Below, in pieces: positions 3,325 to 34,446 of a stretch of 34,446 bases of DNA. The stretch's first letter is position 1. Every line of letters starts with the position of its first letter. The notes under the pieces are model-generated. The model searched no databases. It was not told where the DNA came from and saw only the letters and a list, made by a program, of their open reading frames with translations. The DNA is from Gammaproteobacteria bacterium (GTDB lineage: Bacteria > Pseudomonadota > Gammaproteobacteria > UBA6429 > Thiohalophilaceae): NCBI GenBank assembly GCA_022712915.1, contig JAFLJQ010000272.1, positions 1 through 34,446 on the forward strand, in the 5' to 3' direction. The translations under genes were made by a program, and so were the position numbers.

Positions 3325-4125
3325 CTAGAGATAGTTTGACCAATCCACCTGACAATCACCAAATACAAAAAAATGCGGATTTAAAAGACAGTCTTTGGTG
3401 TTATATCGTAGAGGTTGCATATTAGTGTCTGTGAACATGCCTCCAGCCTCTTCGACAATACACTGTGCTGCTGCAGTATCCCATTCTGATGTCGGGCCCA
3501 ATCGAGCGTAGATGTCGGCCACCCCTTCTGCCACCAGGCATGACTTAAGAGCGCTGCCCATACTTAGCATTTCATAGTCGCCGATATTGGCGATGAAATG
3601 GTTGAATTCATCCGATGGACGTGAATGGCTACCCGCGATCACCACCGGTTTACGATGATTTGATTTCACGTAAATTCGTTTCGGTTTTTTATCCTTGGTC
3701 TTTTTATAGGCCCCTAGTCCGCGGGTCGCAAAATAGCACTGCTTCAGCTCCGGGGCGTGTATTAGTCCCATGATTGGCTTGCCATTTTCGATCAGGGCAA
3801 TATTGACGGTGAATTCATCATTGCGGCGAATAAATTCGCGTGTCCCATCCAATGGATCCACCAGCCAGTAAAGTGGCCATTGTTGCCGTACTTCATATAG
3901 TATTTCTGGCCCTTCTTCTGAAATAACCGGCAAATCCGGCGTCAATTGCCGCAAACCTTCGTCGATGATCTCATGGGCGGCTATATCGGCCTGGGTGAGT
4001 GGGGTCTGATCGGGCTTGTGTTTCACATCGAAGCCACAATAATAAAAATCCAAAATTCGTGCACCAGCCTTAATGGCTAGTGACATTATGGGCATTTGTA
4101 GCGCCTGTAATGTTTTTTTGTCCAT
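3325..4125 (-). CDS. cysQ: 3'(2'),5'-bisphosphate nucleotidase CysQ
   Basis: CysQ hydrolyses 3'-phosphoadenosine 5'-phosphate (PAP), the by-product of PAPS reduction, to AMP. The 266-aa product carries the inositol-monophosphatase-fold metal sites: SEE near residues 69-71, DPLDGT near 90-95 and WDTAA near 215-219. These supply the Glu/Asp ligands for Mg2+ and the catalytic loop. The start is placed at ATG 4125, 4 nt after the stop of the upstream nudE remnant. An in-frame ATG at 4149 would overlap that gene by 20 nt and add eight residues not typical of the family. Pairing with nudE is conserved in gammaproteobacteria such as Pseudomonas. Confidence 0.92.
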   Translation of the reverse strand: MDKKTLQALQMPIMSLAIKAGARILDFYYCGFDVKHKPDQTPLTQADIAAHEIIDEGLRQLTPDLPVISEEGPEILYEVRQQWPLYWLVDPLDGTREFIRRNDEFTVNIALIENGKPIMGLIHAPELKQCYFATRGLGAYKKTKDKKPKRIYVKSNHRKPVVIAGSHSRPSDEFNHFIANIGDYEMLSMGSALKSCLVAEGVADIYARLGPTSEWDTAAAQCIVEEAGGMFTDTNMQPLRYNTKDCLLNPHFFVFGDCQVDWSNYL

Positions 4126-32571: not shown

Positions 32572-33121
32572 ATGGTGTGGTGATAACCCTCTCTATGTAA
32601 AGTACCATGATCAGGAGTGGGGAGTGCCCGTATTTAATGAGCGAAAATTATTTGAAATGTTAACGCTTGAAGGCGCTCAGGCGGGACTAAGTTGGATCAC
32701 CGTCCTGAAAAAACGTGCACAGTATAAAAAAGCATTTGATCATTTCGATCCAAACAAAATTGTCCATTACAACAAACACAAAGTTGAAAGTCTGTTAAAA
32801 GACCCGGGCATAATACGAAACCGCCTGAAAATAGAATCCACCATTGGCAATGCCAGGGCCTGGTTGGAGTTACAACAACAAAAAATTAAACCAGTGGATT
32901 ATTTATGGCAGTTTGTCGAAGGCGAGCCAATACAGAATCAGTGGGCCTCACTTAAACAGGTGCCCGCTACGACAAGGCAATCCGAAGACATGAGTAAGGC
33001 GTTAAAAAAACGCGGCTTCAAATTTGTCGGCCCCACTATTTGTTATGCCTTTATGCAGGCAGTAGGGATGGTCAACGACCACACCACGAATTGTCATCGC
33101 CATTCTCAACTCAAGCCATAG
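32555..33121 (+). CDS. tag: DNA-3-methyladenine glycosylase I
   Basis: Tag excises 3-methyladenine from alkylated DNA. The 188-aa product begins MQQRCEWCGDNPLYVKYHDQ, aligned with the start of E. coli Tag, and continues with GVPVFNERKLFEMLTLEGAQ, GLSWITVLKKR and KALKKRGFKFVGPTICYAFM. Zinc ligands are visible: an N-terminal Cys and His (Cys5, His18) and the C-terminal NDHTTNCHRH cluster. ATG 32555 is preferred over 32534 because family members start there and GAGGA lies 8 nt upstream. It overlaps the WYL gene by 17 nt, so is translationally linked. Unlike E. coli tag, it sits under a WYL-linked promoter. Confidence 0.94.
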   Translation: MQQRCEWCGDNPLYVKYHDQEWGVPVFNERKLFEMLTLEGAQAGLSWITVLKKRAQYKKAFDHFDPNKIVHYNKHKVESLLKDPGIIRNRLKIESTIGNARAWLELQQQKIKPVDYLWQFVEGEPIQNQWASLKQVPATTRQSEDMSKALKKRGFKFVGPTICYAFMQAVGMVNDHTTNCHRHSQLKP

Positions 33122-33299
33122 GGGAGCTGATGCAAATCATCTTGTCCGTTTTGAAATCGGTATGTTTTAAGGCGTAGGCCAGTAACATACAGCCAAATGA
33201 ATGGACGATAACGGCCTTGATTGAGCAGACATTTTTTATGTCCGCATGCAGTGCATCACTCATTTTAAAAAGTAAGTAGCTAGACACCTTCCGGAACAA
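33111..33299 (-). pseudogene. Remnant of an alpha/beta hydrolase gene
   Basis: This 62-codon frame starts at a TTG without ribosome-binding site and ends in TGA inside the 3' end of tag. Its centre encodes AVIVHSFGCMLLAYALKH followed by KMICISSPM, which is the nucleophile elbow (HSFG, Ser) and following helix and strand of an alpha/beta hydrolase. The oxyanion loop before it and the lid, Asp and His regions after it are absent. It looks like the middle of a decayed hydrolase gene that lost both ends. Homology is by pattern only. Confidence 0.5.
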
Positions 33300-33368
33300 A
33301 ACTACAAATCAACATGTCACCCGTTGTTTTTAAGACTATTATAGGCATTTATTACGATGGGTGTCCGG

Positions 33369-33528
33369 CTAATAATACTTCCTGACAAACTCCATACCAA
33401 GTTCATCTTTTATTTCAGGTTTTTTTCTTAACTTACGAACAGTCACTTGTCCGAAAAAAAACAAAGAAAATCATGACCACAAATGTTACAGAGGCAACTA
33501 TTGCAAGTAGTGTTGAAAATAAACTCAT
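33369..33528 (-). pseudogene. Frameshifted small membrane-protein gene
   Basis: From ATG 33528 the first frame encodes a hydrophobic helix (MSLFSTLLAIVASVTFVVMI) and stops after 31 residues at 33433-33435, just past an 8-T run (33454-33461 on this strand). Changing frame in that run joins it to a second open frame with ordinary basic/acidic composition (GQVTVRKLRKKPEIKDELG, then MEFVRKYY), ending in TAG at 33369-33371. The combined product would be about 52 residues: one transmembrane helix and a charged tail. A homopolymer slip (mutation or sequencing error) is the simplest explanation. Confidence 0.45.
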
Positions 33529-33552: not shown

Positions 33553-34329
33553 TCAACCACCACTATTATTCTTAACAGCATAATTCATATCGATAGAGGC
33601 CGCTGCGGCACCCACAACAACAGCACCGCCGACAACCAAAGCAACCCACCCAGCAGGTGTTGCCACGAGAAGAAAAGCAATACCGGCATTGACGATAGCA
33701 GCACCCAATGCAAAACTACTCGAATCAATAAGCAACGCCCGTTCCCGGTAATCACTTGCTTTATAAGTATTGTGGATACGGTCTACTCTTGAACCAAAAT
33801 CGATCACCGCTAATCCGTTGCCTAAAAATTTAGCCTATTTACTGTAGTTCACCAGATTGCTGGCCTGTCCCTGACTGGTAATATTGAGTTTGGCGATGTT
33901 GCGGCTGTTGCGAGCAATGTTAGTGGCTCGGGAGGGATGACCCAGAGGGATACCTTTTCTTGCCTTTGATGCGGCGGTGACAGAAGCCAGTTCATACCGG
34001 AATTGTAGTTGCATTTGTTGAAAGGCAGAAACGGCCTTTTGCTTGGCCAGAACTCGTGCTGCCGGATTGGTCTTCATCACCTTGCGGTATTCCATCAGGG
34101 CATCCTGATATTTTTTCACCGCCAGACCGAAGCCCTGCACACGATTGGCATACATACTGGTCGTTGCGCCTATCATGCCAATTTGCTGTTCCTTTAATTT
34201 GGCCATAATATCCGCAAGGGCCAAGGTATTATCTTCCCCAAAAGACAGGCTCAGGTTCGTCAGATTCTGTACTGTTGGCCCCGCCCCCAATTGACCCAGT
34301 AGATTGGGTGTAACTCTCACACTGATCAT
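33553..34329 (-). pseudogene. Unknown protein gene interrupted by an in-frame TAG stop (164 + 93 codons)
   Basis: From ATG 34329 a 164-residue helical, Gln/Ala/Lys-rich segment (e.g. YANRVQGFGLAVKKYQDALM) is read to TAG at 33837-33835. The same frame then continues without another stop for 93 codons: AKFLGNGLAVIDFGSRVDRI, a polar stretch, then two strongly hydrophobic Gly/Ala/Val segments (FALGAAIVNAGIAFLLVATP and ALVVGGAVVVGAAAA), ending NNSGG. The second part alone could start only at GTG 33807 or later. Continuity of frame, composition and spacing suggests one 258-codon gene with a nonsense mutation or rare readthrough. Coiled N part plus glycine-zipper C part suggests a membrane-inserting protein; no family was recognised. 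The start overlaps the upstream gene's stop (ATGA). Confidence 0.6.
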
Positions 34330-34446
34330 TTTCGTTGAAATTTCACCACATTATTCGGTAATAGAATCGGTTTAAGGTAAAAATTTTTGACTTCCTCCCA
34401 AGCCTTATCAAATTGCTGACTGAGAAGAATCGAGCGAAAAGTTAGC
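34326..34446 (-). CDS. C-terminal end of an unidentified gene (cut by window edge)
   Basis: The minus-strand frame entering from the right edge is open for 39 codons (LTFRSILLSQQFDKAWEEVK, then LPNNVVKFQRK) and stops at TGA 34328-34326. That stop overlaps the next gene's ATG as ATGA, implying translational coupling with the amber-split gene. The residue composition is normal for coding sequence. Identity cannot be determined from this tail. Confidence 0.6.
   Translation of the reverse strand, partial: LTFRSILLSQQFDKAWEEVKNFYLKPILLPNNVVKFQRK

What the first reader, a model, noticed from the sequence alone, without database searches (positions are those of the whole stretch)
33553..34329. In-frame amber codon splits a putative membrane-inserting protein gene
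The 164-codon and 93-codon open stretches are in the same frame, separated only by TAG at 33835-33837. The second half has a glycine-zipper-like hydrophobic pair and no ATG start. The 27 nt directly after TAG also reads as plausible protein (AKFLGNGLA). A coiled N-terminal part followed by a Gly/Ala-rich membrane part is reminiscent of pore-forming or secreted effector architecture, which is only a suggestion. TAG is an ordinary stop elsewhere in the window, so nonsense mutation is more likely than recoding.
Basis: partly seen in the sequence, partly recalled or inferred. Interest (0 to 1): 0.62.

Follow-up and report, generated by a model that had tools for sequence, protein, structure and literature searches.

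The report
Decayed antibacterial toxin–immunity gene pair
The stop codon sits in the wreck of a gene for a probable bacterium-killing, membrane-inserting toxin: its front end was replaced by a jumping element, its protecting gene next door is also broken, and an intact copy survives elsewhere in the same genome, so this is ordinary gene decay and not a special reading of the code.

Summary
In detail: one frame on the minus strand, open on both sides of TAG 33835-33837. Searches with the two pieces kept apart found an intact 324-aa paralogue in the same genome (G000:C252) and nine further full-length relatives in other genomes and on one plasmid. All are open at the TAG position. The decay is much wider than a single stop. 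The "164-codon ORF" takes its ATG and first 8 codons from the right end of an ISKra4-like insertion element, which replaced residues 1-56. A second premature stop (33553-33555) removes a conserved tail. The downstream partner gene (33384-33528) is frameshifted and truncated beside a MITE-like repeat and a hydrolase-gene fragment. Intact relatives pair with a small membrane protein (presumed immunity), and their genomes mostly encode a type VI secretion system (9 of 10 carriers, against 61 of 359 others). Best reading: a dead copy of a T6SS-type, pore-forming-like effector/immunity pair from a family without a Pfam or NCBIfam model. Toxicity, delivery and pore formation are inferred, not shown.

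The parts
34306..34446 (-). Right end of an ISKra4-like insertion element (C-terminal end of the transposase gene plus terminal inverted repeat), running off the contig end; it supplies the ATG (34329-34327) and first 8 codons of the apparent 164-aa ORF
   Evidence: 98.6% identical to three other places in the genome: C263:2068-2207, C232:1-139, C166:24441-24579. The C263 copy encodes a 494-aa transposase matching NF033572 ISKra4 at E=5e-46 but below that model's cut-off. A terminal inverted repeat was found at the left end.
33838..34305 (-). Effector pseudogene, part 1: matches residues 57-212 of the intact 324-aa paralogue G000:C252:2968-3942
   Evidence: 88% aa identity; homology begins exactly where the IS repeat ends
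33835..33837 (-). Premature TAG; sense codons at this position in all intact relatives
   Evidence: several different residues found there in relatives, so the position is not conserved
33556..33834 (-). Effector pseudogene, part 2: matches residues 214 to about 312; hydrophobic Gly/Ala-rich helical pair
   Evidence: single-sequence model: three helices, mean pLDDT 67.5
33553..33555 (-). Second premature stop (TGA), upstream of the conserved YDxIM-type tail of the family
   Evidence: intact relatives continue 10-12 residues past this point
33384..33528 (-). Remnant of the partner (putative immunity) gene: 25 codons, a frame change near 33454, 24 further codons, then loss of homology
   Evidence: 56% and 75-79% aa identity for the two stretches to intact relatives of about 124 aa
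33278..33378 (.). MITE-like dispersed repeat of about 100 bp with inverted ends, next to the truncated end of the partner gene
   Evidence: related copies on contigs C128, C60, C77, C267 and others
33121..33271 (-). Fragment of an alpha/beta-hydrolase-like gene whose full 337-aa copy is at G000:C198
   Evidence: 88% nt identity over 151 bp

Best explanation
This is a pseudogene: a degenerate second copy of an effector/immunity gene pair. The intact family members most likely work as antibacterial toxins. An N-terminal part (about 57 residues, or a LysM domain in a distant subgroup) would dock the protein to the type VI secretion spike. A coiled middle and a C-terminal Gly/Ala-rich hydrophobic helical pair would then insert into the inner membrane of a rival cell and depolarise it. 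The small membrane protein encoded immediately downstream would protect the producer. In the window copy an ISKra4-like element replaced the start of the gene, including the presumed delivery part. TAG and TGA stops break the frame, and the partner gene is frameshifted and truncated. Shown here: homology, intact copies, the lesions, the IS junction, adjacency of the partner gene and co-occurrence with T6SS. Inferred: toxicity, delivery route, pore formation and immunity function.
For: An intact 324-aa paralogue followed by a 124-aa membrane protein lies in the same genome. Full-length relatives open through the TAG position occur in G030, G008, G221, G232 (two copies), G108 (two copies), G238 and a Pseudoalteromonas plasmid. 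The IS repeat ends where effector homology starts, 34305/34306. The N-terminal 56 residues occur only at C252. Second stop and broken partner gene. Repeat and gene-fragment debris next door. dN/dS of 0.15 before and 0.25 after the stop means both sides were once one selected coding sequence. T6SS: TssB/VipA genes in this genome; 9 of 10 carrier genomes against 61 of 359 non-carriers in the class sample, Fisher p about 2e-6. A distant LysM-bearing subgroup shares the C-terminal membrane region, and LysM links T6SS toxins to VgrG in PMC10673891.
Against: Reads were not available, so TAG alone could be a base-call error; the IS junction and the partner gene's 3' truncation could not. Two carrier genomes lack TssB (G232, 99% complete; G027, 82% complete). 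Most loci do not sit beside T6SS genes. No sequence match to a named T6SS effector family above cut-off and none to a solved structure.
Confidence: 0.86

Rival explanations
1. TAG is read through (recoding or a suppressor tRNA) and a working longer protein is made.
For: Same frame on both sides and low dN/dS on both sides.
Against: TAG is an ordinary stop nearby. A second stop (TGA) follows before the conserved tail, the true N-terminus is gone, and the partner gene is broken. Intact relatives have no TAG there.
Confidence: 0.02
2. The TAG is a sequencing or assembly error in an otherwise working gene.
For: Draft genome of 274 contigs with the lesion near a contig end; reads not available.
Against: Independent lesions on both sides: IS junction, second stop, partner-gene frameshift and truncation. 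An error at one base would not explain these.
Confidence: 0.04
3. The two halves are separate working proteins: the 84-aa GTG-start ORF is a short membrane toxin of its own and the 164-aa ORF another protein.
For: C-terminal-only open frames of 77-138 aa occur beside partner genes in G027 and G236, and G214 and G163 carry partial copies.
Against: Those pieces lie in arrays beside fuller copies or partner genes and look like displaced remnants, some with stops of their own. Ten uninterrupted full-length copies exist. The 164-aa ORF's start is IS sequence.
Confidence: 0.04
4. The locus is a pseudogene, but the family is not an antibacterial T6SS effector; it is some other membrane protein pair, for example a toxin-antitoxin or abortive-infection type module.
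For: Loci are mostly away from T6SS genes; two carriers lack TssB.
Against: Strong T6SS co-occurrence, partner-gene arrays like T6SS immunity arrays (PMC5361080), LysM N-terminus in the distant subgroup, and one locus (G008) near a lipase, a DUF6795 protein and an Rhs gene. Ssp4-like T6SS effectors are also often distant from T6SS genes (PMC12669606).
Confidence: 0.2

Closest known systems
Ssp4/Sip4 pore-forming T6SS effector family (PMC12669606)
   Same: Membrane-helix-bearing cargo effector often encoded away from T6SS genes with a small membrane immunity protein directly downstream; marine members reported
Ssp6/Sip6 and its 'silent' homologue SMDB11_0810 (PMC6889166)
   Same: Pore-forming T6SS effector plus membrane immunity protein, and a second silent copy in the same genome
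   Different: The silent Ssp6 homologue kept residual activity and a working immunity protein; the window copy is broken in both genes. Sequence relation not tested
BTH_I2691 / VasX / Tke5 pore-forming T6SS effectors (NF041559)
   Same: Faint similarity of the C-terminal membrane region in two distant relatives (E=0.002 and 0.033, far below the cut-off)
   Different: No match for the closest paralogue; much shorter protein (about 324 residues against 858 model positions)
T6SS effector-immunity arrays with displaced effector remnants in Vibrio cholerae (PMC5361080)
   Same: Full module followed by partner genes and effector 3' pieces in relatives (G027, G214, G236, G163, G232, G108)
   Different: In the window copy the partner gene is broken too, and an IS element is involved

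Membership tests
Pseudogene (nonsense/IS-inactivated copy) | Uninterrupted homologues with sense codons at the stop | tested here: met
Pseudogene (nonsense/IS-inactivated copy) | Further independent disabling lesions | tested here: met
   IS-replaced 5' end, second stop, frameshifted and truncated partner gene
T6SS antibacterial effector-immunity pair | Small gene immediately downstream encoding a conserved protein with membrane segments | tested here: met
   for the intact relatives; in the window only a broken remnant
T6SS antibacterial effector-immunity pair | Carrier genomes encode a T6SS | tested here: met
   9 of 10 carriers against 61 of 359 non-carriers, p about 2e-6; exceptions G232 and G027
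T6SS antibacterial effector-immunity pair | T6SS-dependent secretion and toxicity relieved by the partner | not testable with these tools
   needs experiments
Pore-forming T6SS effectors (Ssp4, Ssp6, TpeV) | Sequence homology to the characterised members | not testable with these tools
   their sequences are not in the collections that could be searched; no NCBIfam or Pfam model matched
Pore-forming T6SS effectors (general) | Transmembrane helical segments in the toxin part | tested here: met
   hydropathy; low-to-moderate confidence helical model
BTH_I2691/VasX family (NF041559) | Score over the model cut-off of 150 bits | tested here: not met
   16.7 and 12.7 bits in two distant relatives, none for the closest paralogue
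ISKra4 insertion sequence (the 5' lesion) | ISKra4 transposase over the model cut-off | tested here: inconclusive
   157.6 bits against a cut-off of 205, E=5e-46; terminal inverted repeats present

The most novel reading that the evidence does not exclude
Broken copies of this family are a recurrent reservoir: C-terminal toxin pieces and partner genes kept as displaced or silent modules are exchanged with the active copy. In the two within-genome pairs compared (G000 and G108) the middle is more alike than the C-terminal part, although across the family the C-terminal part is the more conserved one; in the G000 pair synonymous divergence also roughly doubles after the stop.
Probability: 0.12. 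Interest if true: 0.4.

Novelty: new member of a known kind. Interest (0 to 1): 0.2.

Why it matters
As a stop-codon puzzle it is ordinary decay. The by-product is a small, widely scattered effector/immunity family with no Pfam or NCBIfam model. It has a strong statistical link to the type VI secretion system, and an intact pair in this genome (G000:C252:2600-3942) that can be tested directly.

Tried and rejected
Pfam and NCBIfam scans of both pieces and of the paralogue gave only sub-threshold hits. PDB sequence search: none. Phage collection: no hit; plasmids: one distant hit, whose annotated neighbours are not T6SS genes. The IS end was not found on plasmids. The genome-contig scan returned only a 134-bp contig-end match in a Pseudodesulfovibrio MAG. 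A single-sequence fold of the 93-residue piece was too weak for a fold search. A decay-only reading of the asymmetric divergence after the stop was set aside, because dS also rises there (0.82 against 0.44), which fits an older divergent C-terminal type.

Full report
Observation. On the minus strand the frame runs from ATG 34329 to TAG 33837-33835 (164 codons), and the same frame then stays open for 93 codons to TGA 33555-33553. TAG is an ordinary stop in this genome: the adjacent DNA-3-methyladenine glycosylase gene (Pfam match over nearly its whole length) ends in TAG at 33119-33121, as do 5 of 19 mechanical ORFs of at least 200 aa.

Intact relatives. The two pieces were kept apart. The first finds a paralogue in the same 4.24-Mb draft genome at C252 with no internal stop. 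That paralogue is a 324-aa protein whose gene overlaps a downstream 124-aa membrane-protein gene by a few bases. Both window pieces align to it collinearly, 88% identical before the stop and 67% after it. Full-length relatives occur in G030 and G008 of the same family, in G221, G232, G108 and G238 of the same class, and on a Pseudoalteromonas plasmid. All have sense codons at the TAG position, where several different residues occur.

The 5' end is an insertion element. The last 141 bases of the window are repeated at 98.6% identity at three other places in the genome, two of them contig ends. At C263 they are the right end of an element with a 494-aa ISKra4-like transposase and terminal inverted repeats. 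Effector homology begins at 34305 and the repeat begins at 34306, so the ATG and first 8 codons of the 164-aa ORF are element sequence, and residues 1-56 of the effector are missing. They occur nowhere else in the assembly except in the C252 copy. The contig ends about 140 bases into the element, as expected when a repeat breaks an assembly.

Further lesions. TGA 33555-33553 stops the frame before the conserved tail found in intact relatives. The partner gene starts at 33528, changes frame near 33454 and loses homology at 33384. Directly next to it lie a roughly 100-bp dispersed repeat with inverted ends (33278-33378) and a 151-bp fragment of a hydrolase gene whose full copy is at C198. The stretch from 33121 to the contig end is therefore a patch of broken genes and mobile-element ends.

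Timing. dN/dS against the paralogue is 0.15 before the stop and 0.25 after it. Most of the divergence therefore built up while the gene was under selection, as one protein across the present TAG. Inactivation is comparatively recent. Divergence is higher after the stop, but dS rises too (0.82 against 0.44), and the G108 pair shows the same protein-level pattern (83% against 69% identity). An older difference in C-terminal type explains this better than neutral decay alone.

Function of the family (inferred). The C-terminal part carries adjacent Gly/Ala-rich hydrophobic segments, and a single-sequence model gives helices at low-to-moderate confidence. Every intact relative with sequence downstream is followed by a small membrane protein, conserved in most (the plasmid copy's partner matches only weakly), and several genomes hold extra partner genes and C-terminal effector pieces in arrays. 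The T6SS sheath gene tssB/vipA is present in 9 of 10 carrier genomes and 61 of 359 non-carriers of the same sample (Fisher p about 2e-6; p about 4e-5 without the window genome and G008). A distant subgroup shares the membrane region and has an N-terminal LysM domain; in other bacteria LysM links toxins to VgrG (PMC10673891). These fit an antibacterial, membrane-targeting T6SS cargo effector with an immunity partner, comparable in kind to Ssp4 and Ssp6 (PMC12669606, PMC6889166). No named family model matches above its cut-off, direct comparison with Ssp4, Ssp6 or TpeV was not possible, and two carriers lack tssB. Toxicity, delivery, pore formation and immunity remain untested.

Verdict. The finding is correct as seen, and its favoured interpretation is supported. 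It is ordinary gene decay in a duplicate toxin module. The effector family itself is a plausible, uncharacterised member of a known kind.

Noticed in passing
L017 (JAFLJW010000346.1), 3483-3616: The last 134 bases of a contig filed under a Pseudodesulfovibrio MAG are 98.5% identical to the start of the C252 effector locus, while the rest of that contig does not match C252: a chimeric contig, a transfer, or the same sample.
   Followed up: partly
L015 5107-7994; L059 7702-9817; L062 6460-8584; L063 5585-6484; L056 5894-7797: Arrays of partner (immunity-like) genes with full or partial effector copies in several genomes, like displaced effector-immunity modules.
   Followed up: partly
L016 6368-7734 and L065 6262-7643: Distant relatives with an N-terminal LysM domain, each followed by a 136-aa membrane protein unlike the main partner family.
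   Followed up: partly
L014 7247-13110: The G008 copy lies near a class-3 lipase gene, a DUF6795 protein and an Rhs gene: a possible effector island.
   Followed up: no
window 33278-33378: A roughly 100-bp MITE-like repeat with inverted ends (AGCTxGACACC...GGGTGTCCGGCT) scattered over several contigs of this genome.
   Followed up: partly
L023 2-2208: At C263 the ISKra4-like element appears inserted into or beside an ISL3 transposase gene.
   Followed up: no
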